Below are positions 23 through 10,723 of a DNA stretch of 20,356 bases, piece by piece. Position numbers and translations under genes: made by a program. Each line of letters opens with the position of its first letter. Positions within the stretch are counted from its first letter, which is position 1. The DNA is from Clostridia bacterium (lineage in GTDB: Bacteria > Bacillota_A > Clostridia > Christensenellales > Aristaeellaceae): contig JAGBAU010000321.1 in NCBI GenBank assembly GCA_017938785.1, positions 1 through 20,356 of the forward strand. Reading direction: 5' to 3'. Under the pieces are notes generated by a model. That model saw only the letters and a list, made by a program, of their open reading frames with translations, was not told where the DNA came from and ran no database searches.

Positions 23-3000
23 ATGACCACAGCTCCCGTATAGGAAGTACCACGCGCGGCGCTGACAAACGAGACACTGCCGGATATATCCTATGTCTGC
101 TATCACCGGCACTCCTGTGTCAGCAATATCCTGCTCACCGACAGCGTGGCAACCAATGAGGACTATGCCCGCCGCGCTGTCGCGCTGGGGCACACGGTTC
201 TGTCCTCCTGCGAACACGGAAACCAGGGTATGTACCATCAGTGCGCGTCTCTGGCTGAACAATATGCGCTTCGCTGGCGCTATGTGACCGAAGCATACTT
301 CGTAAAGGATCGGCACGAGAAGGACAACACCAACTGCCACCTCATTCTGGCGGCAAAGACCCGCAAGGGCGTTGGTGACCTGAACTTCATTCTGTCCGAG
401 TCCAATATCTCCGGCTACTACTATCGTCCGCGCATCGATCTGGAGCTTTTGCTTTCTCTGGATCCTAAGGATGTGTTTGTCACTACCGCCTGTATCGCCG
501 GCGTGTTCAAGTATGGTGAAGAAGCGGCTGAACGTCTGATTTTGCGCATGGCAGCGCACTTCCGCGATAGCTTCATGCTGGAAGTACAGTATCACAACAC
601 CGATAGGCAGAAGGAGCTCAACCGTTTCCTCCTGAGGCTTTATCGGGCACATGGCATCCCTCTGATTATGGGAACAGACAGTCATTTCATCTATCCGGAG
701 GACGCCGCCCTTCGCGAACACCGTCTGGAAGCGAATCATATCCGCTACGAGGATGAAGGAGGCTGGTATATGGACTATCCATCCGGCGCCGAGGCCTTCC
801 GACGCTTTCAGGAGCAGGGCGTTCTGTCTGATGCACAGATTCATGAGGCCATTGAAAATACCAACATATTCCTGACCTTTGAAGATGTCATGTTTGACAA
901 AAGCAAGAAGCTGCCGACGATCCATCCGCATCTGACACAGGAACAGCGCAATCAGAAGTATATGGAACTGATTCTGGGCGAGTTTGAACGGAAGACCGCA
1001 GAAATGTGCGAAGCAGAAAAGGCTGTTCGTATGGAAGGATTGAGGTACGAAGCCAACACTGTCACCTCCACCGGTATGAGCGACTATTTCCTTCTGGATC
1101 ATGAAATTGTACGTCGTGCTGTAGAAAACGGCGGCGTCATCACCAAAACCGGCAGAGGAAGCGCCCCCAGCTATTACACCAACTCTCTTTTGGGCTTGTC
1201 TTCCATTGACCGTTTCTCCATTCCGGTTGAAATGTTTCCGGATCGCTTCATTTCCGCTGACCGCATCCTTTCCGGTTCGCTGCCGGACATTGACATGAAC
1301 GTTGCCAACCGTGAAGCCTTTGAGCAGGCGCAGACCGAAGTTCTTGGCGAGTGGCACGCAGCCCCAATGGTCGCATTCGGTACATTGAAACGCTTGTCCG
1401 CATGGAAAATGTACTGCCGCGCTGCAAACATTCCATTTGAAACAGCCAACGAGGTGGGCAATCAGCTGAAGGAATATGAAACTGCCGTCCGATATGCGGA
1501 AGAAGGCGAGGAAATCGAGCTTTCAGATTATATTCCGGAGCAGTTCCGCGATCTGATCGCTGCAAGCGAACAATACATGGGTATGATCGACTCCATTTCG
1601 CCGCATCCCTGTGCCTATCTACTGTGTACAGAGGATATCCGTCGCGAAATCGGCGTCATCCGCATCAACAGCAAGACAGGAAAAAAGCAGCCTGTGTTTG
1701 CTGCCTTCATTGACGGGGTTACCGCCGAGCTATACGGTTATCTCAAAAATGACCTGTTGATGGTGGACGTCGTCCGAACCAATCAGGAAGCATTCAGACG
1801 CATTGGCATGAAACAGCCTGATGTCAGCACTCTTCTGGATATGACGCGCAATGATCGCGACACATGGCGGATGTACGCCGAGGGCCACACCATGGGCCTC
1901 AATCAGGTGGAGCAGGAGAAAACACGCGAAAAGGTCATGCGGTATAAGCCGAAGAATATCACGGAGCTTGCCGCCTTCGTTGCCGCTGTTCGTCCTGCAT
2001 TCAAATCCATGCTGCCCACATTTTTGGATCGGAGGCATTTCGATTATGGAATTCCTGCTTTCGACAAGCTGATCCAGACGAGGGACATGACCTCCAGCTT
2101 CATCCTGTATCAGGAACAGGTCATGAAGGTTCTGCAATACGCAGGCTTCACTGCTCCCGAGTCCTATTCCGCCATCAAAGCCATTGGTAAGAAGCACCCT
2201 GAAAAGGTGATGCCTCTGAAGGAAAGATTCATGGAAGGTTTCTCTGCAAAGACGGACGCACAGTCTGCAGAAAAGGTCTGGAAAATCATAGAAGATGCTA
2301 CCTCGTATGGTTTCAATAGTAGTCATGCTGTCTGTGTGGCACTTGATTCCCTGTATGGAGCATGGCTGAAGGCTCATCACCCGTAGGAGTACTACACAAC
2401 ACTCCTGTCAGGCTATGCCGATAAAGGAGATAAGGATCGCATTGCGCAGGTCAAGGCTGAGATGAAGCGGGCTTTCGGTATCCGGATTGCGCCCTGCAGA
2501 TTCAGGCAGGACAATCGGGATTACTATATCGATCACGACGAAAACACTATTTCCGATGCGTAGACCTCTGTCAAGCACATCAGTCGGCGTGTCGCCAATG
2601 CGCTCTACGATATGCGCGACACATTTTATGTCTGTTTCACCGATCTCCTGTACGATATGGAGATGCACCCGGCGTTTGATTCTCAGGCAATCGAGATTAT
2701 GATTCGCCTCGACTACTTCAGGGAGTTTGGCATGATTGGAAAACTTTAGAAACTCTTCCATGAGTTCAGAAACGGAGAATTCCGCTTCTCCAAGGCCCAT
2801 GTAGCCGCCACCCAGCAGACACGGCTGCATATACTGCGCCGTCTGGAAAGCGAAATGACAGACGAGCCCGTTTCACCTTATGAACAGCTGCGCTTTGAGA
2901 TCGAGCACTGTGGAACGCCACTCACTACCTTTGATGATCTGCGTGATGAATATGCCGTGCTGGAAATAGATGACAGGTACAGCCCCAAACTGCTGTTATA

Positions 3001-3196
3001 CAGTATTGCGACGGGGCACACCGGCATCATGAAGATCAAGAAAGCTCTGTTCCGACAGCAACCTCTGGACCCCGGCACAATCCTGAAGCTTCTTTCATGG
3101 GAGCGCAAGCCGTCCTATCGATTTGTGGACGGTAAGCCCAAGCCTAACCGAAATGTCACGGAACTGTGGATGACTGGATACCAAGTTCTGCAATGA
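23..3196 (+). CDS. dnaE: Phage DNA polymerase III alpha subunit (DnaE-type) with four in-frame TAG codons
   Basis: This is a C-family replicative DNA polymerase of 1057 codons, a little shorter than cellular DnaE. The start is set by AAGGAG at 7-12 ahead of ATG 23. TAG codons lie in frame at 41, 2384, 2561 and 2747 (codons 7, 788, 847, 909), and translation ends at TGA 3194. An N-terminal PHP domain (YHRHSCVSN, near residue 27 on) is followed by the palm motif PDIDMN with Asp422 and Asp424. The third catalytic Asp is probably Asp577 in KNDLL. YQEQVMKVLQYAGF and GFNSSHAVCVALDSLYGAWLKAHHP match the conserved fingers region. The first long open stretch stops at the TAG after LKAHHP, and the frame continues as EYYTTLLSGY, which is normal family sequence. 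The last ~100 residues (YAVLEIDDRYSPKLLLY and on) resemble the C-terminal region of phage and mobile-element DnaE. Under the standard code only a 6-residue peptide would be made. It lies first in the visible operon. Confidence 0.93.
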
Positions 3197-3211
3197 CAGG
3201 TTAAGCCCTGT

Positions 3212-3233
3212 GCGTAGAGTTCACACTCTACGC
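3212..3233 (+). other. Perfect hairpin just upstream of the suppressor tRNA
   Basis: GCGTAGAG (3212-3219), loop TTCACA, then CTCTACGC (3226-3233) gives eight perfect base pairs. It starts 15 bases after the dnaE stop and ends 5 bases before the tRNA. No T-run follows, so it is not a classic intrinsic terminator. It may separate mRNA from tRNA, act as a processing signal, or attenuate transcription. The role is inferred. Confidence 0.6.
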
Positions 3234-3238
3234 TGCAT

Positions 3239-3324
3239 GCTCCCGTGGTGGAATCAGCAGACACGTTGCTCTCTAAAAGCAATGCCTGAAAGGCGTACAG
3301 GTGCAAGTCCTGCCGGGAGCACCA
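3239..3324 (+). tRNA. Amber suppressor tRNA, anticodon CTA, leucine-type class II
   Basis: The cloverleaf folds by eye. Acceptor GCTCCCG (3239-3245) pairs with CGGGAGC (3314-3320), followed by A73 and an encoded CCA (3321-3324). The D arm is GTG/CAC. The anticodon stem TTGCT/AGCAA (3266-3270, 3278-3282) encloses loop CTCTAAA, so the anticodon is CTA (3273-3275), which reads UAG. A 14-base variable arm (T, GCCT-GAA-AGGC, GT) makes it class II. The D arm resembles the neighbouring host tRNA-Leu(CAG), and A14, A15, T48 and A73 match known bacterial leucine identity features. Known tRNA-Gln has a short variable loop, which excludes it here. Oddities: the usual GG of the D loop reads AG, T-loop position 55 is G instead of T, and pair 49-65 is A-C. 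The gene sits inside the operon whose TAG codons it should read. Confidence 0.93.
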
Positions 3325-3497
3325 TTTTTACCACTTACATAATAAACCGTAGAAGGAAGGGATCCCATCGCAACCACTTATACGACGCAATCATCCCTGA
3401 CTTCACGGCAGTTATGTCCGCACATGGCTACACATGGCAGACATTGAAAGCTTCTGCCATTGAGCATCCCGATCAACAAAAGGAAGGAGTAACCAAT

Positions 3498-3812
3498 ATG
3501 CAATTTGCCCCCTAGCGATTCGTACATGTCGGCTTTGGCAACGTCGTCTGTGCCAACCGCATCGAGTCCATTCTCATGCCCCTGTCATCCAATGCAAGAC
3601 GACTGTGTAAGACCGCAAAGGATGAAAAGGTGTATATGGATCTTACGGCAGGCCGCGCCACCAAGGCGTTGATCCTGCTGGAGGATGGCAAGGTGTACGG
3701 CTGCGCGTAGACTCCGCGCACCATCGTCCAGCGCATCCACGAAACAATTATTGAAGGAGAATCCGAAGATGAAGATACTGAACCAGAGTGCGAAAATTCT
3801 GAAGCCGACTGA
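3498..3812 (+). CDS. RemA-like (DUF370) protein with two in-frame TAG codons
   Basis: ATG 3498 follows AAGGAAGGAG (3480-3489). TAG occurs at codon 6 (3513) and codon 71 (3708), and TGA at 3810 ends a 104-residue product. The core RFVHVGFGNVVCANRIESI, then MDLTAGRATKALILLEDGKV, follows the order of Bacillus subtilis RemA (FINIGYGNMV... YGRRTRAVIIMDSDHV...), a DNA-binding activator of biofilm matrix genes. The second TAG aligns with a hydrophobic position of RemA, just before the PETV-like segment (here TPRTIV). About 25 acidic residues follow the core, which RemA lacks. The last 44 bases overlap thyX. Its role in a phage is unknown; binding phage or host promoters is a guess. Confidence 0.78.
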
Positions 3813-4383
3813 CGGCTTACAGGTGCTTCGCGATATCGAATATGCAGGCCGCAACTGCTACCGATCCGAAGGCAAGATCACCGAAGACAGCGCGCCGCGT
3901 TTTGTACGTTCGCTGATCCGCCGTGGCCATCTGTCTCCGCTGGAATTTGCAGATATGACTGTGGAATAGATCACCTCCCGCGACGTCATGGCTGAAATCA
4001 CCCGTCACAGGCTCGCCAGCTTTGCGATCGAGAGTCAGCGTTATGTCAATCTTTCCGGTGACATCGCCTTTATCCGTCCTCTGTTCTACAAGGATGGCGA
4101 TCGGGCAACTGATTTCTGGCTGGAATGTATGAAGGATGCCGAGGAATCGTATCACTTCATGCAGGAGTGCGGCATGCTTCCTGAGGACGCAAGAAAGGTT
4201 CTTCCGAATTCCACAGCTACCCGCATCGTCATGAAAGCCAATCTTAGAGAATGGCGGCACATCCTTGGATTGCGCATGAGCAAAGCTGCCTATCCCGAAA
4301 TGCGCATCCTGATGCGAGAGTAGTTCAAACAGGCCAAAGCAACCATTCCGGTTGTTTTCGACGATATGGAGGTGCCTGAATGA
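3769..4383 (+). CDS. thyX: Flavin-dependent thymidylate synthase ThyX with two in-frame TAG codons
   Basis: ThyX makes dTMP from dUMP using FAD and methylenetetrahydrofolate. ATG 3769 follows GAAGGAGA (3753-3760). TAG codons at 3967 (codon 67) and 4321 (codon 185) are read through, and TGA 4381 ends a 204-residue protein of family size. The ThyX signature RHR-x7-S is present as RHRLASFAIES, followed by QRYVN. The first TAG lies 11 codons before this signature, in a beta strand (DMTVE*ITSRDV) where the family is hydrophobic. The second lies in the last helix before IPVVFDDM (MRE*FKQAK), where relatives carry an aliphatic residue. Under the standard code the first TAG would remove the signature motif. 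It overlaps remA upstream and the glutaredoxin-like gene downstream (ATGA). Confidence 0.93.
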
Positions 4384-4598
4384 AAATCATTCTCTATTCC
4401 AACCGATGTCCCTGCTGTGATGTGTTGAAGACGCGCCTGGATGAGGCGGGTATTGATTACATGATCAATAGCAATACCGAAGATATGCTCATGCAGGGAA
4501 TTACGTACCTGCCGATGCTGTCCGTGGACGGCGAGATGATGAATTACCCGGCTGCCCTTGCATGGCTGAGTGAAAGGATGAACCCCGATGCGAATTGA
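4380..4598 (+). CDS. Glutaredoxin/NrdH-like thiol redox protein
   Basis: This 72-residue protein begins MKIILYSNRCPCCDVLK. It has a CPCC active site at the end of the first strand, and the conserved cis-proline segment of the thioredoxin fold appears as TYLPMLSVDGEMM. It probably reduces disulfides in reductases, and the neighbouring nrdD and thyX suggest a place in dNTP supply. The start overlaps the thyX stop as ATGA. It contains no TAG, so it is among the few phage genes readable in either code. NrdH proteins normally feed class Ib reductases, so the partner of this one is uncertain. Confidence 0.8.
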   Translation: MKIILYSNRCPCCDVLKTRLDEAGIDYMINSNTEDMLMQGITYLPMLSVDGEMMNYPAALAWLSERMNPDAN

Positions 4599-6453
4599 TA
4601 AATACAGAGATCATGCATCCCATTAGGATTTCATTTCCCGCTACGGTAAGGCGATCAATGCCGCAACCGGCAGTGAGGTAGATCCGAATGCGAATGTCGA
4701 AAGAAAGAGCATTGCCACCTTGGAAACGGAGCTGTTCAAGCGCGATGCCATAGCAATCAATCGGCTGGCTATGTATCAGAAGCTCAGTCAGATGTATGGT
4801 GTGGATACTGCCGAGGAATACCTCCGCCAGCTTGAGGAGCATGAGATTTACCGTCACGACGAAACCGGCGTTATCGGAAAACCGTACTGCGCATCTGTTA
4901 CGCTTTATCCGTTCCTGTTCCATGGGAACACCCTGATCGGCGGTACCAGCGAGGCGCCGAAGAATCTTGCTTCATTCACCGGCTCATTCATCAATCTGGT
5001 GTTTGCTCTGGCGTCGCAGTTCTGCGGAGCCATAAGCACTCCTGAGTGGCTGGCATACATGGACTATTTCGTTCGCAGGGAATACGGTAACGATTACTAT
5101 CTTCACGCGGATGAATGTGTAGATGCTTCCAGCCGTAAGCGCACCGTTGACAAGGTAATCACCGATGCCTTTGAACAGGTAGTGTACAGCTTGAACCAGC
5201 CGGCAGCGGCCAGAGGGAATCAGTCTGTCTTCTGGAATATTGCCTACTTTGACAAGCCTTACTTTCATGGCATGTTCGAAAACTTCGTCTTTCCGGACGG
5301 AACGCCTATGCAATGGGAATCCGTGAACTGGCTTCAGAAGCGTTTCATGAAGTGGTTCAACAGGGAACGCCTGCGTAAGCTGCTCACCTTCCCGGTGGAA
5401 ACGGTGAATCTTCTGGATGATGGCAGCGATTACGTCGATCAGGAGTGGAAGGACTTTACCGCCGAAATGTGGGCAGAAGGACACAGCTTCTTTGTGTACA
5501 GATCGGACAGCGTGGACTCGCTGTCATCGTGCTGTAGATAGAGGAACGAATTGCAGGACAACACCTTCTCCTTCACGCTCGGCGCAGGCGGCGTATCCAC
5601 CGGCAGTAAGTGCGTCATGACCATCAACGTCAATCGCCTGGTGCAGAATGCAATCTGGGATCTTGGCCTAGAGGATGTGCGCGAAGCAATGAGTATTCAG
5701 GTTGAGAAGGTTCACAAATACCTGCTGGCGTTCAATGAAATTCTTCACGAACGCAAAGAGGCCGGACTTCTGCCCGTATATGACGCCGGATTTGTCAATC
5801 TGGAAAAGCAGTATCTGACGATTGGCATCAACGGATTCATTGAAGGTGCTGAATCGCTGGGAATCGACATTGATCCCGCAAATGCTGACTACATTGCCTA
5901 TGCGGAAGCAGTTCTCCAGCCCATCTATGAAGCCAACCGAGCTGCCCGAGGCAATGGAATCCTCTGGAATACGGAAATGGTGCCTGCGGAGAATCTTGGC
6001 ATCAAAAACGCCATGTGGGACAAGGCAACAAAGCTGTTTGTTCCCCGCGATTGCTACAACTCCTACTTTTTCCGCGTTGAAGATCCGAAGGTCAACGTAC
6101 TGGACAAGCTGATGCTTCACGGCAAGGCTTTTACCAAGTATCTCGATGGCGGCAGTGCCTGTCACATCAATCTGGACGAGCATCTGACGAAAGAACAGTA
6201 TCTTCTACTTCTGGAAGCAGCAATCAAGACCGGATGCAGCTACTTTACCTTCAATGTTCACAATACCCTGTGCAAAACTTGTGGATATATCAGTAAACAC
6301 CGGCTTGTTGAGTGTCCTGTATGCGATAGCAAGGATCTGGACTACGCTACCCGTGTGATTGGCTACCTGAAGCTCGTTTCCAGCTTCTCGAAGGAGCGTC
6401 AGGAAGAAGAGGAGCGCCGCCATTACAACGATGGATTGGAGGAGTTCAAATGA
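4588..6453 (+). CDS. nrdD: Anaerobic (class III) ribonucleotide reductase NrdD with two in-frame TAG codons
   Basis: This glycyl-radical enzyme reduces ribonucleoside triphosphates to dNTPs without oxygen. ATG 4588 is the chosen start, ahead of TAG at codon 13 (4624); a second TAG is at 5539 (codon 318) and TGA 6451 gives 621 residues. SDSVDSLSSCCR*RNELQDN continues straight into TFSFTLGAGGVSTGSKCVM, so the two open segments are one protein. From memory the family reads CCRLRNE there, which supports leucine. A C-terminal zinc site (CKTCGY and CPVCDS) and the glycyl-radical segment TRVIGYL (Gly592) are intact. There is no ATP-cone domain of normal size at the N terminus. The start overlaps the upstream redox gene, and the stop overlaps the FTR-like gene as ATGA. 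Confidence 0.95.
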
Positions 6454-6644
6454 GAGTCATTCTGAATCCCGATGAGGGCTTCGTCAGGAACCTCAAAAAG
6501 CGCATCAAGGCTAACAATAACTTTTGCCCCTGCAAATAGGAGAAGAAGCCTGAAAACAAGTGCCCCTGTAAGGATTTCCGGGAGCATCAGGATTGTCATT
6601 GCGGCCTGTACATCAAAGTTAAGGATGGCGATGATAAATGCTGA
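6450..6644 (+). CDS. Small ferredoxin-thioredoxin-reductase-like protein with one TAG
   Basis: This 64-residue product starts at ATG 6450, overlapping the nrdD stop. TAG is at codon 30 (6537) and TGA at 6642. Cysteine motifs run CPC (26-28), CPC (38-40), CHC (49-51), then GLYIK. This is the layout of the ferredoxin-thioredoxin reductase catalytic chain, which holds a 4Fe-4S cluster next to a redox disulfide. The spacing between the first two motifs is shorter than in plant FTR. The TAG lies right after the first CPC motif (CPCK*EKKPENKCPC), where relatives known to me read CPCRLEK. It probably supplies electrons or thiol reduction to the anaerobic reductase encoded on either side; that role is inferred. 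Confidence 0.8.
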
Positions 6645-6883
6645 TCTGTGTGGAATGCGGCGCGTTGTTTGAGCAGGCAAAAGTCGTATTTGAGAGGCAT
6701 GGGCTGGACTCTCCGCCATATGAAGAGCTTTGCGTATGTCCTCGCTGTGAAGGAACCAATATCCATCAGGCATGCCGCTGCGATGTATGCGGTGAATGGA
6801 TTACGGGCGGCTATGTTGTCACCGTTGACGGCGACAGAATATGCGATGACTGTTATACCAAACGTGACGTCGAAGACGACTGA
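6638..6883 (+). CDS. Small zinc-ribbon protein
   Basis: This 81-residue protein has four CxxC pairs: CVEC (4-7), CPRC, CDVC and CDDC, with a short acidic tail. That suggests two zinc ribbons. The fold is clear but the partner is not. It starts at ATG 6638, overlapping the end of the FTR-like gene, and stops at TGA 6881, five bases before nrdG. It contains no TAG. Its place between nrdD and nrdG suggests a link to the reductase system, but that is position only. Confidence 0.75.
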   Translation: MLICVECGALFEQAKVVFERHGLDSPPYEELCVCPRCEGTNIHQACRCDVCGEWITGGYVVTVDGDRICDDCYTKRDVEDD

Positions 6884-6887
6884 CCCA

Positions 6888-7364
6888 ATGCTGAAATATG
6901 TGGAGTGTGCAGTCACAATGGCGGAGGCGCCGAGAGAAATCAGCTTAACGCTGACGATTTCCAACTGTATTTTCCGCTGTCATCACTGTCACTCTCCATA
7001 TCTTCGGCAGGATATCGGGAAACTGCTGTAGCGCGACCTTGATGCGCTGATTCGGCGTTACAGCGGACTCATAACATGCGTTTGCCTCATGGGAGAGGGA
7101 CAAAACGTGCCTCAGCTTGAACAGGCATAGAGAATCATCCGGTCGTCCGGTCTTAAAACCTGCTTATATTCAGGCAGCAGGTCTGTTGAACCATTCAGAT
7201 TTCTGCTCCCGTTACTGGATTACATCAAGCTGGGACCATACATGGAAGAACTGGGCGGGTAGGATAGCCCAACCACAAACCAGCGGTTCTACAGAGTTTC
7301 CGCTGGCACACTGATTGATGAAACGTGGATGTTTCACAGAAAGAAGGAAGAATATGACCATTGA
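6888..7364 (+). CDS. nrdG: Anaerobic ribonucleotide reductase activase NrdG with three in-frame TAG codons
   Basis: NrdG is a radical-SAM enzyme that installs the glycyl radical on NrdD. ATG 6888 is used, with a weak ribosome binding site; an internal ATG at 6918 is possible. The cluster motif Cx3Cx2C is Cys27, Cys31, Cys34 in ISNCIFRCHHCHSPYL. TAG codons are at 7029, 7128 and 7260 (codons 48, 81, 125), and TGA 7362 gives 158 residues, the family size. After the third TAG the text reads DSPTTNQRFYRV, the conserved NrdG tail. I recall the family as GGLDSPTTNQRFY, so this is one of the best leucine sites. Its pairing with nrdD in one operon supports the call. The end overlaps the Nudix gene. 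Confidence 0.93.
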
Positions 7365-7998
7365 ACAGTATCGTGAAAAGTACGGAGATGCAGTCGTCAT
7401 GGGCGTAGATCGTTCCATGGTAGCTGATTACTAGAAGGGCGATTTCACCTGCCGCAGAGACGCCATCCTGCTTTACGGCGGCGACGTTATAACGCTCAGA
7501 GATTGGGTACAGCAGCACATGAAGCCCATGCTCCGCTGTGAAGCCGAATGCAATCCCGCATTCAAGCAGATCATTCCGTATGTGCTGATTGAGCACAAGC
7601 CCTCCGGCAGAGTATACATGACCACCAGAATTGGCGGCGACGAACGTCTCATCGGACAGCATAGCATTGGTCTCGGTGGGCATATGGACGAGGGCGAATC
7701 CATCATGGACTGCCTGTACCGTGAACTGGAGGAAGAAGTCGGTCTCGCCAAGGCAGATATTGCAGACATCACCTTCTGCGGATTCATCGCCAAGGAAGGC
7801 AACGAAGTGGACAGCGTTCATCTGGGTATGGTCTACTATGCCTATACCGACCATGAAGACATTTCCTGCCTTGAGGCCGATAAACTCACTGGAGATTGGT
7901 TCACGGTAAGACAGATGGCTGAAGCCCGTAGTAACGGCTATATGGAATCCTGGAGCGCACTCTGCTTTGACAGGCTGCTGGCAAAGGAGGAAGAATAA
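7354..7998 (+). CDS. Nudix hydrolase with one in-frame TAG
   Basis: Starting at ATG 7354, inside the end of nrdG, the frame meets TAG at codon 27 (7432) and then runs open to TAA 7996, giving 214 residues. The Nudix box is intact at residues 109-131: GHMDEGESIMDCLYRELEEEVGL fits Gx5Ex7REUxEExGU. Such enzymes hydrolyse nucleoside diphosphates linked to another group, and here may act on nucleotides or oxidised dNTPs. The substrate cannot be read from the sequence. A shorter standard-code start at ATG 7519 would still keep the Nudix box, so this gene is a less strict test of recoding than nrdD. Residues 1-55 upstream of that ATG look coding (RRDAILLYGGDVITLRDWVQQHM). Confidence 0.85.
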
Positions 7999-8339
7999 TG
8001 GCGATCATTACCGGCGTCCAGCCCGATGCACCTACTGAAACCAACGAAAATGGCGGCAGGCAGTCTAAAACGCCATATGCGTTTCATTTTCTTCCTCCTC
8101 ACGCCGTTTTTGCAGCGGCTGAAGTTGCAAAGTATGGCGCTGAAAAGTATGGCGAAACGCTGATTGACAGGAATTACAAGAAGATTTCCGCCGAGGAACA
8201 TGTCAATCATGCCATCCAGCATCTGTTTGCCTATCTTGCCGGTGACGACAGCGACGATCATCTGAGCCACGCGATTCTCAGAGCAATGTTTGCATTTGAG
8301 GTTGACCATGAAAGAGACAGAACAGACGGTTACGCCTGA
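7998..8339 (+). CDS. DUF5664 family protein (dATP/dGTP diphosphohydrolase-like, N-terminal type)
   Basis: This 113-residue protein has the family pattern GGRQSKTPYAFHFLPPHAV, then KYGAEKYGE, then HVNHAIQHLFAYLAGDDSDDHLSHA. This resembles phage proteins annotated as dATP/dGTP diphosphohydrolase or MazG-like, and HxxH/DDxxxH-type residues could bind metal. The start ATG shares its first base with the TAA of the Nudix gene, so the two are coupled. It contains no TAG and ends at TGA 8337, overlapping the next gene. It likely adjusts the nucleotide pool, but the exact reaction is uncertain. Confidence 0.78.
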   Translation: MAIITGVQPDAPTETNENGGRQSKTPYAFHFLPPHAVFAAAEVAKYGAEKYGETLIDRNYKKISAEEHVNHAIQHLFAYLAGDDSDDHLSHAILRAMFAFEVDHERDRTDGYA

Positions 8340-8856
8340 TCGGTTGCGTATATAGTGCGCTGATCTGTCACTTCGATGCCCCGGATTTGCTGTTTTGCGT
8401 TATGAGGCCGGTAAAGCAACCGTAGACATGCTCTGCCATGTTGACAATCGCACTGCAAAGGCGTCTCACGGCGAACTGCTGAACACGATCTATATTCGCA
8501 TGATGTCAATAGCGTCAGATATCGATGTTTTCGTGCGCGAAAGAGCTTTTTCACGCTTCGCAAGAGAAACTCAGGCGCTTAACAAGGTTGTTGGTATCGC
8601 TGATCTGGTTGCATGGCAGAAAGATCAAGCCGTCTTTTGCGAAATTGCGCCTACAACGGTCAAGAAACTGCTCACAGGCAGCGGAAGATCTGAAAAAGAA
8701 GCAGTCGCAGGAGCTTTGGAGCGTTATTTAGGCTTCCAGATATACAAAACGGATGACGAAAGCGACGCTGCAGCGGTTGGGGTTGCATGGCTCCTGCAGG
8801 AAAAATTGTTGGGAGAAAATCGATGCCGCAATACTGGCGAAGGTGAACAAAAATGA
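8308..8856 (+). CDS. RuvC-like Holliday junction resolvase with one in-frame TAG
   Basis: ATG 8308 lies inside the previous gene's end. TAG is at codon 16 (8353) and TGA at 8854, for 182 residues. The RuvC fold is supported by the first strand RI*CADLSLRCPGFAVL with catalytic Asp19, by Glu78 in FVRERAFSRF, and by Asp149/Asp153 in TDDESDAAAVG. EIAPTTVKKLLTGSG is the conserved segment of the phage RuvC-like group. The TAG sits in the first beta strand, one step before the catalytic Asp, where RuvC proteins read RILGID or RILGLD, so leucine is expected. Starting downstream of the TAG would lose the first catalytic residue. It probably resolves branched phage DNA before packaging. It is the last gene of the operon. 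Confidence 0.9.
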
Positions 8857-8859
8857 GAG

Positions 8860-8911
8860 GTGTTATGTTCCTATCTCTTTTCGGATGGGAACATAACACA
8901 TTTTTCTCTTT
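8860..8911 (+). terminator. Intrinsic terminator after the replication and nucleotide operon
   Basis: GTGTTATGTTCC (8860-8871) pairs perfectly over 12 bases with GGAACATAACAC (8888-8899), followed by ATTTTTCTCTTT. It starts three bases after the RuvC-like stop and closes the operon. Confidence 0.92.
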
Positions 8912-9019: not shown

Positions 9020-9256
9020 ATGCCTAAACTGAAGCAATCGGAGTATGACTTGAAGGTCAGACAGTTTCAGGCGACAGTAGCAAAGCAGCTGATTCTATAG
9101 GGATATAGCAAGGATCAGCTTGCGAAATTGCTTCGAATTAGCCGTTCGGCACTATGGGCACGTTTACGGGATCCGAAGCAGTTCCGGGTTGGAGAATTGC
9201 ATTCTCTACACTATCTGCTGAAGTTTTCAGAGGAAGAGCGACACATTTAGTTTTGA
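9020..9256 (+). CDS. Small HTH regulator with an in-frame TAG at codon 27 and a second near the end
   Basis: ATG 9020 follows GGAGGTGAG. The frame reads 26 residues, TAG (9098), then GYSKDQLAKLLRISRSALWARLRDPKQFRVGELHSLHYLLKFSEEERHI, a second TAG (9248), Phe and TGA (9254). The segment after the first TAG is a Cro/CI-like helix-turn-helix (QLAKLLRISRSALWARL) followed by a helical tail. With TAG read as sense the product is 78 residues. With standard reading only a 26-residue peptide without DNA-binding motif is made. The second TAG could equally be the real stop, since only one residue follows. It lies between its own promoter and the integrase. It may be a repressor, a Cro-like protein or an excision regulator; the sequence does not decide. 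Confidence 0.75.
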
Positions 9257-9304: not shown

Positions 9305-10435
9305 ATGAACATTACCCGTCTACCCAGCGGAACATGGCGAGCGCGTGTCTATATTGGAAAAGTGAATGGCGTATCGAAGTATCAGCCATTTACTGGGGAT
9401 ACCAAGAAAGAAGCTGAGATGCTCGCTATGGAATTCCAGATTGAGTTCAAGAAGGATCCTGTAAAAGCTCTCATGAAATACGGCGTAGAACCCACAGATA
9501 CGCCCTCAGAGACGCCTGCTGTTTCATATGAGGAAATGACTGTCGGAGAGGCGATTGACGCCTACATCGCCAATCTGGAAGGCGTAGTATCCGCAACAAC
9601 AATTCGTCGGTATAAGAAAGATCGTGAGAAGTTTTTCAAGCCGCTCATGGAGATTCAGCTCAAGGATTTGAAGCAGCCCGTTATCCAAACGGCAGTATCT
9701 GCAGAGGCAAAGCATTTTGCACCTAAATCGATTCACTGCGCACATGGGCTGCTGTCTGCTGCTCTTGGCATGTACAAGCCGGACTTTGTGCTAAAAACAA
9801 ATCTGCCTCCGATTCCGGAGCCGGATCTTCACATTCCCGAGGAACAGGATGTAAAGCGCCTGCTTCAGAATATCGAAGGCAAATGGCTTGAAGTTGCGGT
9901 TTTGCTTGGGGCTTGTGCCGGTATGCGACGCTCCGAAATCTGCGGTCTGAAGTTTTCGGATATCAACCTTGACAAGAACACAGTGCAGGTCAGGAGAACG
10001 GTTGTGAAGGATTCGGAAGGGAAGTGGATTGTGCAGGAGCGGACGAAGACTGTCAAGAGCAAGCGTGAGATTGAACTGCCTGGCTTTATCATTGCGAAGC
10101 TCTGGAATCAGCCGCGCGACAGTGAGTTCGTTGTTCCTGTAAAACCGGATACAGTATCGAAAGAGTTCATCGACACCAGAAACTCTCTCGGGCTGAAGTG
10201 CCGCTTCCATGACTTGAGACATTACAACGCCTCGATCATGCTTGCGCTGAACGTCCCAGACAAGTATGCGATGGAACGTATGGGATATTCCACGCCTGCA
10301 ACTCTAAAGAAGGTTTATCAGCATACCATGTCCGGAAAGCGAGCAGAGGTCAACAATATGATCAACAGTCACATGGACGAAATGTTTACCGGCATTGCCT
10401 CTGTCTCCGATACTGAAAACAGAGCATCAGCATAG
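9305..10435 (+). CDS. int: Phage tyrosine recombinase (integrase)
   Basis: This 376-residue site-specific recombinase has an AP2-like arm-binding N terminus (ITRLPSGTWRARVYIGKVNG... TKKEAEMLA), a core-binding region (EAIDAYIANLEGVVSATTIRRYKK) and a catalytic domain. Catalytic residues visible are Arg208 (CAGMRRSEICGL), His302 and Arg305 (HDLRHY) and Tyr338 (KKVYQHTM). AGGAGG (9293-9298) sits ahead of ATG 9305. The frame contains no internal TAG, in contrast to most other phage genes. It reaches TAG at 10433. If TAG is read as sense, the frame adds three residues and ends at TAA 10442, so the enzyme is functionally the same in both codes. Integrase next to a tRNA 3' end is the usual layout for integration into a tRNA gene. 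Confidence 0.95.
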   Translation: MNITRLPSGTWRARVYIGKVNGVSKYQPFTGDTKKEAEMLAMEFQIEFKKDPVKALMKYGVEPTDTPSETPAVSYEEMTVGEAIDAYIANLEGVVSATTIRRYKKDREKFFKPLMEIQLKDLKQPVIQTAVSAEAKHFAPKSIHCAHGLLSAALGMYKPDFVLKTNLPPIPEPDLHIPEEQDVKRLLQNIEGKWLEVAVLLGACAGMRRSEICGLKFSDINLDKNTVQVRRTVVKDSEGKWIVQERTKTVKSKREIELPGFIIAKLWNQPRDSEFVVPVKPDTVSKEFIDTRNSLGLKCRFHDLRHYNASIMLALNVPDKYAMERMGYSTPATLKKVYQHTMSGKRAEVNNMINSHMDEMFTGIASVSDTENRASA

Positions 10436-10635: not shown

Positions 10636-10723
10636 TGGTGCGGGAAACAGGACTTGAACCTGCATGTCCTAAGCGAACACTAGAACCTGAATCTAGCGCG
10701 TCTGCCAATTCCGCCATTCCCGC
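10636..10723 (-). tRNA. tRNA-Leu (anticodon CAG)
   Basis: Acceptor GCGGGAA pairs with TTCCCGC, followed by A73 and encoded CCA at 10636-10638 (complement). The anticodon loop TTCAGGT gives CAG at 10687-10689 (complement). It has a long class II variable arm, and the D arm TGGCGGAATTGGCAGACGC is leucine-type. It is the last tRNA of a three-gene operon, and its 3' end faces the integrase, so it is the likely phage attachment target. Confidence 0.95.

What the first reader, a model, noticed from the sequence alone, without database searches (positions are those of the whole stretch)
3239..3324. TAG is probably read as leucine, not glutamine
The suppressor has a 14-base variable arm, A73, A14, A15-T48 and a D arm like tRNA-Leu. 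In E. coli, LeuRS is known not to depend on the anticodon, and tRNA-Leu amber suppressors (supP) are known, so a tRNA-Leu with CTA should be charged with leucine. Independent protein evidence agrees at sites where I recall the family residue: NrdD CCR*RNE, NrdG LGG*DSPTTNQ, FTR-like CPCK*EKK, RuvC-like RI*CADLSL, ThyX MRE*FKQAK, DnaE GKL*KLF and ISDA*TSV. Amber recoding in phages is generally modelled as Gln (code 15), so a Leu version would be a distinct code.
Basis: partly seen in the sequence, partly recalled or inferred. Interest (0 to 1): 0.95.

Follow-up and report, generated by a model that had tools for sequence, protein, structure and literature searches.

The report
Phage reads amber stop as leucine
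A phage region in a bacterial chromosome carries a leucine-type tRNA that matches the stop codon TAG, and its in-frame TAG codons lie where related proteins mostly have leucine, so this phage likely reads TAG as leucine instead of the glutamine reported for other recoded phages.

Summary
The finding holds up. The tRNA at 3239-3324 is real: CTA anticodon and the four leucine marks I checked (A14, A15, U48, A73), found together in 12 of 13 tRNA-Leu and 0 of 11 tRNA-Ser of my set. Nine of 13 phage genes hold 18 in-frame TAG codons; 12 genes end in TGA or TAA, the integrase alone in TAG. Of 15 TAG columns with relatives, 14 hold leucine at least once; 46 of 78 cells are Leu, none Gln. NrdD residue 318 is Leu in 120 of 120 homologues, DnaE 847 and 909 in 70 of 71 and 66 of 69; DnaE 788 is mixed, more Tyr (44) than Leu (31 of 85). 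Across related phages TAG faces Leu in 384 of 477 sense cells. The CTA tRNA recurs in the four related contigs that cover the region. A T4-like phage probably does the same. Twelve papers read in passages and searches showed UAG=Leu in eukaryotes, none in a phage. Charging and incorporation are untested. New variant of phage stop-codon recoding.

The parts
3239..3324 (+). Leucine-type suppressor tRNA, anticodon CTA
   Evidence: ARAGORN; Rfam tRNA 44.2 bits; A14, A15, U48, A73
3212..3233 (+). 9-bp perfect hairpin just before the tRNA; role unknown
   Evidence: sequence; fold
23..3196 (+). dnaE-like DNA polymerase III alpha, 4 in-frame TAG (41, 2384, 2561, 2747)
   Evidence: Pfam, PHROGs, TAG positions
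3498..3812 (+). RemA-like, 2 in-frame TAG (3513, 3708)
   Evidence: Pfam PF04025
3769..4383 (+). ThyX, 2 in-frame TAG (3967, 4321)
   Evidence: Pfam PF02511
4380..4598 (+). glutaredoxin-like (named by eye), no TAG
   Evidence: conserved in kin
4588..6453 (+). NrdD, 2 in-frame TAG (4624, 5539)
   Evidence: Pfam PF13597
6450..6644 (+). FTR-like small protein, 1 in-frame TAG (6537)
   Evidence: Pfam PF02943
6638..6883 (+). small cysteine-rich protein, no TAG
   Evidence: conserved in G001
6888..7364 (+). NrdG-like radical SAM protein, 3 in-frame TAG (7029, 7128, 7260)
   Evidence: weak PF04055, place next to nrdD
7354..7998 (+). NUDIX hydrolase, 1 in-frame TAG (7432)
   Evidence: Pfam PF00293
7998..8339 (+). 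small protein of unknown function, no TAG
   Evidence: conserved in G001
8308..8856 (+). RuvC-like, 1 in-frame TAG (8353)
   Evidence: Pfam PF02075, PHROG 159
8860..8899 (+). terminator-like hairpin, 17 pairs, followed by a run of T
   Evidence: z -9.92
9020..9256 (+). small HTH-like gene (by eye), 2 in-frame TAG (9098, 9248)
   Evidence: no Pfam or PHROG match
9305..10435 (+). tyrosine integrase, no internal TAG, ends in TAG
   Evidence: Pfam PF00589
10636..10723 (-). tRNA-Leu(CAG), likely attachment site (inferred)
   Evidence: ARAGORN

Best explanation
This phage likely translates its in-frame TAG codons as leucine by means of its own leucine-type tRNA with a CTA anticodon, which is predicted to be charged by the host's leucyl-tRNA synthetase. 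Shown: the tRNA and its leucine marks; 18 in-frame TAG codons in genes whose relatives read on with sense codons; leucine as the prevailing residue opposite TAG; and a CTA tRNA in the same gene order (dnaE, tRNA, remA on one strand) in four related contigs. Inferred: charging by LeuRS, competition with host RF1, and actual incorporation. Also inferred: the tRNA sits inside the block of replication genes that need it, while the integrase has no internal TAG and uses TAG as its own stop, so the leucine code would be on only while that block is transcribed and TAG codons would block leaky production of lytic proteins in the prophage.
For: Identity marks A14, A15, U48, A73 in 6 of 6 CCA-ending Leu-type suppressors, 12 of 13 tRNA-Leu, 0 of 11 tRNA-Ser, 0 of 1 Tyr, 0 of 2 Gln, 1 of 6 Arg. 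Window columns: 15 of 18 sites have sense relatives, 46 of 78 cells Leu, 0 Gln; score Leu 12.6, Ile 9.4, Gln -9.6; sense-codon control right in 1137 of 1140 samples. NrdD 318 L 120/120, DnaE 847 L 70/71, 909 L 66/69; solved NrdD 4coi has Leu at 318. Clade: best residue Leu in all 11 contigs scored, e.g. G001 36.9 against Ile 24.2 over 47 sites, G007 58.7 against 37.9 over 62. TAG faces Leu in 384 of 477 sense cells at 65% identity or more, CTG being its commonest partner. Synteny of the tRNA. Stops TGA 11, TAA 1, TAG 1.
Against: DnaE 788: Tyr 44, Leu 31, Met 6, Phe 3, Gly 1 of 85. Leu leads alone at only 9 of the 15 window sites, ties at 4, and does not lead at 41 (G, V) and 3967 (Ile 2, Leu 1). 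Non-clade kin alone: Ile 8.7, Leu 8.6 over 12 window columns, and 26 of 200 samples of Met codons reach as many Leu-led columns. Solved relatives have Ile/Ile/Leu and Cys at the ThyX sites, Met and Val at the RemA sites. 15 of 477 clade cells are Gln. Three of 18 sites have no informative relative. Cells come from related contigs and are not independent. The window tRNA has unusual A18 and G55. No Gln-recoded positive control could be run.
Confidence: 0.92

Rival explanations
1. TAG is read as glutamine, as in the known code-15 phages.
For: The usual model in the paper passages read (PMC9523058, PMC8346664, PMC10607447); 15 of 477 clade cells are Gln.
Against: 0 of 78 window cells Gln and score -9.6; clade score G001 -26.0, G007 -36.8; the tRNA lacks the marks of the two tRNA-Gln in my set.
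Confidence: 0.01
2. TAG is read as isoleucine, methionine or another hydrophobic residue.
For: Ile is second in the window score (9.4 against 12.6) and level with Leu when only non-clade kin are used (8.7 against 8.6). One survey predicts an Ile isotype for 10% of 180 phage amber tRNAs (PMC10879173, passage).
Against: NrdD 318 and DnaE 847, 909 are almost purely Leu; clade cells Leu 384, Ile 21 of 477; the long variable arm and the four marks are of tRNA-Leu type.
Confidence: 0.04
3. TAG is read as tyrosine or serine by a class II suppressor.
For: Bacterial tRNA-Tyr and tRNA-Ser also have long arms; DnaE 788 is Tyr in 44 of 85 homologues.
Against: Window scores Tyr -4.2, Ser -8.9; Ser genes in my set mostly have G73, and the one host tRNA-Tyr checked has G15 and C48.
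Confidence: 0.015
4. Ordinary nonsense mutations in a decaying prophage, or assembly errors.
For: Prophages do decay; the left end of the element is not in the window.
Against: All 18 internal stops are TAG in frames otherwise open; several TAG sites are shared with other phages; TAG exchanges with Leu codons across the clade; a CTA tRNA recurs at the same place.
Confidence: 0.01
5. A pyrrolysine tRNA, as the program's label says.
For: Label and anticodon.
Against: The body is leucine-type and the columns are Leu. Pyrrolysine enzymes were not searched for.
Confidence: 0.005

Closest known systems
Amber-recoded (code 15) phages: crAss-like, Lak, phAss-1
   Same: TAG as a sense codon in phage genes within a host that stops at TAG; phage-borne CTA tRNA
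   Different: Those are assigned Gln (passages of PMC9523058, PMC8346664, PMC10607447, PMC7886860); here Leu, with a leucine-type tRNA
NCBI code 16 and other UAG=Leu codes in eukaryotes (chlorophycean mitochondria, phyllopharyngean ciliates, a rhizarian)
   Same: UAG=Leu with UAA and UGA kept as stops in the ciliate and mitochondrial cases; the ciliate suppressors are leucine-type tRNAs (passages of PMC11687900; rhizarian: PMC5304391)
   Different: Those are codes of a nuclear or organelle genome; here it is a phage code inside a host using TAG as a stop
E. coli supP, a tRNA-Leu amber suppressor (recalled)
   Same: tRNA-Leu body with CUA anticodon inserting Leu at amber codons
   Different: supP is a mutant host gene; this is a phage gene with 18 client codons in the window
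Phage amber tRNAs beside HDV-like theta ribozymes
   Same: Phage-borne CTA tRNAs
   Different: Their predicted isotypes are Gln, Trp, Ile, Tyr (PMC10879173, passage); no HDV-like ribozyme reached Rfam's cut-off here

Membership tests
Amber-recoded phages in general | In-frame TAG codons in conserved phage genes | tested here: met
   18 in 9 of 13 genes; relatives have sense codons there
Amber-recoded phages in general | Phage-borne tRNA with CTA anticodon | tested here: met
   kin
Code 15 (TAG=Gln) phages | TAG columns mainly Gln | tested here: not met
   0 of 78 window cells; 15 of 477 clade cells
Code 15 (TAG=Gln) phages | Suppressor of Gln type | tested here: not met
   A14, A15, U48, A73 as in tRNA-Leu; the two tRNA-Gln in the set lack A73
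Code 16 (TAG=Leu, rest standard) | TAG columns mainly Leu | tested here: met
   DnaE 788 is an exception
Code 16 (TAG=Leu, rest standard) | TAA and TGA remain stops | tested here: met
   12 of 13 phage genes end in TGA or TAA
Code 16 (TAG=Leu, rest standard) | Sense codons keep the standard meaning | tested here: met
   1137 of 1140 samples right, for codons with at least 15 sites only
Leucine-inserting amber suppressor tRNA | Leucine identity marks | tested here: met
Leucine-inserting amber suppressor tRNA | Charged with leucine and inserts it at UAG | not testable with these tools
   needs a charging assay or peptides

The most novel reading that the evidence does not exclude
Phages have reassigned TAG to leucine at least twice: in a temperate clade of Clostridia phages, where the CTA tRNA sits inside the very gene block that needs it and the integrase keeps the host code, and in an unrelated T4-like phage whose suppressor resembles its own tRNA-Leu(CAA). 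In the temperate clade the leucine code acts as a lock on lytic genes that opens only when the early block is transcribed.
Probability: 0.55. Interest if true: 0.82.

Novelty: new variant of a known kind. Interest (0 to 1): 0.74.

Why it matters
Annotation tools for recoded phages translate TAG as glutamine (table 15; PMC11210395, passage), so proteins of this clade would be wrong at every TAG. A leucine version shows that the amino acid chosen in phage recoding is open, and suggests a rule: synthetases that do not read the anticodon (LeuRS, recalled) let a tRNA become an amber decoder by anticodon change alone. It also gives a sharp prediction, leucine in TAG-spanning peptides, that existing gut metaproteomes could test.

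Tried and rejected
Own genome: not held, so the left end of the element and this host's LeuRS, release factors and tRNA set were not seen. Gln positive control: 10 contigs with a Gln-like CTA tRNA pattern gave only 3 TAG positions with any match and no usable column, so the control rests on sense codons. Whole-sequence tRNA identity was too weak for G001 and G012, where Ser came slightly ahead of Leu (0.653 against 0.645, 0.645 against 0.628); replaced by position marks read at fixed offsets. G006 was considered as a further Leu phage and rejected: 23 columns, Ile 1.5, Leu -0.4. G010: 16 columns, Leu 6.2, Ile 6.1, unresolved. G008 matched the tRNA pattern, but ARAGORN finds no tRNA in its locus L037. 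No HDV-like ribozyme reached Rfam's cut-off in the five sources searched. Promoter-like sites were no more frequent than in shuffles (12 against 11.6), nor terminator-like sites (9 against 9.9), so no promoter is claimed. Solved structures: ThyX 67 aligns with Ile, Ile, Leu and ThyX 185 with Cys, RemA with Met and Val, FTR-like with a poor match, RuvC-like not covered at its TAG. 'Leads' breaks ties by order: of the 13 Leu sites of the window, Leu leads alone at 9 and ties at 4.

Full report
What is there. The window is one end of a phage element followed by host chromosome. From 23 to 8856 run eleven phage genes on the + strand: DnaE, RemA-like, ThyX, a glutaredoxin-like protein (by eye), NrdD, an FTR-like protein, a small cysteine-rich protein, an NrdG-like protein, NUDIX, a small protein and a RuvC-like protein. 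A strong terminator-like hairpin closes them at 8860-8899. Then come a small HTH-like gene (by eye; no Pfam or PHROG match) and a tyrosine integrase (9305-10435), next to a tRNA-Leu(CAG) gene at 10636-10723. Integration there is inferred. To the right lie genes read as host genes; the two best matches of one of them are Clostridia MAGs at 77-78% identity, and one DnaE fragment 88% identical to the window's is named Candidatus Ventricola, a Clostridia genus.

The tRNA. ARAGORN places a CTA tRNA at 3239-3324. Rfam scores it 44.2 bits against a cut-off of 29 when searched alone; the larger gathering search had not listed it. It has A14, A15, U48 and A73 and a 14-base variable region. Among CCA-ending tRNA genes in my set these four occur together in 12 of 13 tRNA-Leu, 0 of 11 tRNA-Ser, 0 of 1 tRNA-Tyr, 0 of 2 tRNA-Gln, 0 of 5 tRNA-Thr and 1 of 6 tRNA-Arg, and in 6 of 6 Leu-type suppressors (window, G001, G007, G009, G012, G343); three Gln-like-pattern suppressors lack them. 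That LeuRS does not read the anticodon and that supP exists in E. coli are recalled, not tested. The window tRNA has A18 and G55 where G18 and T55 are usual (numbering mine); the effect is unknown.

The TAG codons. Nine of 13 genes hold 18 internal TAG codons; 11 genes end in TGA, 1 in TAA, and the integrase, with no internal TAG, ends in TAG. TAG is 18 of 303 leucine-plus-TAG codons. In 17 host-kin loci TAG ends 24 of 155 long ORFs (longest-ORF heuristic). Three Clostridia genomes carry two or three RF-1-family genes each, and the phage contigs G001 and G007 show none (the family does not tell RF1 from RF2). So TAG looks like an ordinary stop for such hosts.

Columns in the window. Relatives came from IMG/VR and from Clostridia genomes. 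Frames were accepted only if third codon positions varied most. Fifteen of 18 sites have a relative with a sense codon; 7432 has only TAG in its relatives and 9098 and 9248 have none. The 78 cells are Leu 46, Ile 12, Val 5, Met 3, Ala 3, Tyr 2, Ser 2, and one each of Gly, Pro, Glu, Phe and Cys; Gln 0. Leu leads alone at 9 sites, ties at 4, and does not lead at 41 (G, V) and 3967 (Ile 2, Leu 1). A BLOSUM-based score gives Leu 12.6, Ile 9.4, Met 7.5, Gln -9.6; the same score names sense codons rightly in 1137 of 1140 samples of that size. With non-clade relatives alone (12 columns) Ile 8.7 and Leu 8.6 are not separated.

Deep homologue sets. The 120 best listed of 8000 scored NrdD homologues all have Leu at residue 318 (nt 5539). 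Of the 120 best listed of 1612 DnaE homologues, those that reach the sites give Leu in 70 of 71 at 847, 66 of 69 at 909, and at 788 Tyr 44, Leu 31, Met 6, Phe 3, Gly 1. The last is the clearest result against Leu at one site; the nearest relatives there have Leu. The homologues were found with the TAG=L translation but aligned with X at TAG. Of 51 shorter DnaE relatives above 70% identity, 33 end just before residue 788 and 10 just before 847, as expected for recoded kin read with the standard code. The solved NrdD 4coi has Leu at 318.

The clade. Leu is the best residue in all eleven contigs scored: window, G001, G007, G012, G343, L093, L094, L095, L097, L098, L099. G001 (72 kb; NrdD pieces 92-94% identical to the window's) gives Leu 36.9, Ile 24.2 over 47 columns; G007 gives 58.7 and 37.9 over 62; for both Leu also leads when only non-clade kin are used (18.7 against 15.2; 36.6 against 25.1). 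Between clade members at 65% identity or more, TAG faces TAG in 176 of 653 cells and a sense codon in 477, of which 384 are Leu (80.5%), Ile 21, Gln 15, Val 8. Leu codons face Leu in 70-81% of all their cells. CTG is the commonest sense partner of TAG (217), though it differs at two bases. Cells are not independent. In G007 and G343 the tRNA lies about 40 bases behind dnaE and before remA, thyX and nrdD; in G012 it lies just behind dnaE with remA about 5 kb on; in G001 it lies just before remA with dnaE about 14 kb away. The bodies differ: G001 and G012 share a D-arm feature with the tRNA-Leu(GAG) of Clostridia kin, G007 and G343 resemble other tRNA-Leu. The body varies, the leucine type stays. 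The pattern I used needs U33 and so would miss variants like G012; it matched 6 IMG/VR contigs and 1 of 396 genomes of the order of G012, so these counts are lower bounds.

A second lineage. G009, a T4-like contig (portal, DnaB-like, RNR and UvsX matches), has a Leu-type CTA tRNA 81% identical to its own tRNA-Leu(CAA). Its UvsX TAG column is Leu in 117 of 119 homologues. Over 17 sites the score is Leu 6.0, Ile 5.8, Gln -8.6, with sense control 1061 of 1160; one helicase site is Glu in 11 of 11 and the portal site Tyr in 4 of 5. I count this as likely, not settled. G010 is unresolved and G006 is not Leu.

Literature. I saw passages of twelve papers, none in full. Phage TAG is given as Gln in PMC9523058, PMC8346664 (Gln in 75-85% of aligned cases in three Lak groups), PMC10607447, PMC7886860, PMC11210395 and PMC13037316. 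One survey predicts isotypes for 180 phage amber tRNAs: Gln 69.4%, Trp 19.4%, Ile 10.0%, Tyr 1.1% (PMC10879173). PMC12386605 reports amber suppressors; the word leucine does not occur in it. PMC8629427 is a genome-wide code screen. UAG=Leu is described for ciliates (81-88% Leu columns) and code 16 (PMC11687900) and for a rhizarian (PMC5304391); PMC8002223 mentions UAG suppression as Leu in mammalian systems. Searches for TAG or UAG as leucine listed no phage case. The library is partial; Borges et al. 2022 is not held and is only recalled.

How it works. Best reading: host LeuRS charges the phage tRNA, which competes with RF1 at UAG; the phage ends these genes with UGA or UAA and so terminates through RF2 (recalled specificity). 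As the tRNA lies among its client genes, the decoder would be made together with them. The integrase, needed when the block is silent, keeps the host code. That this is a lock on lytic genes in the prophage is inference; similar ideas are in print for Gln-recoded phages (mentioned in PMC12386605, passage).

Noticed in passing
L045-L052 (G009, IMGVR_UViG_3300047547_000041): T4-like contig with its own Leu-type CTA tRNA and TAG codons at mostly hydrophobic columns; likely a second TAG=Leu lineage.
   Followed up: partly
L056 / G006:39313-39389: Leu-type D arm with CTA anticodon but no long variable arm; 23 TAG columns in this contig do not point to Leu or to any one residue.
   Followed up: partly
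L078:1347-1432 (G012): The suppressor has C instead of T at position 33 of the anticodon loop.
   Followed up: no
window 3239-3324: A18 and G55 replace the usual G18 and T55; the 18-55 contact seems changed on both sides.
   Followed up: no
window 3212-3233: Perfect 9-bp hairpin ending 6 bases before the tRNA; possibly a processing signal.
   Followed up: no
L010:4318-7251 (G001): NrdD is interrupted by about 1 kb; a matching database protein carries intein and LAGLIDADG-type domain labels.
   Followed up: no
L010:17264-19096 (G001): Group II intron pieces between the tRNA-remA side and dnaE.
   Followed up: no
window 9020-9256: The small HTH-like gene before the integrase has TAG ahead of its HTH-like part, so under the host code it would stop after 26 residues.
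   Followed up: no
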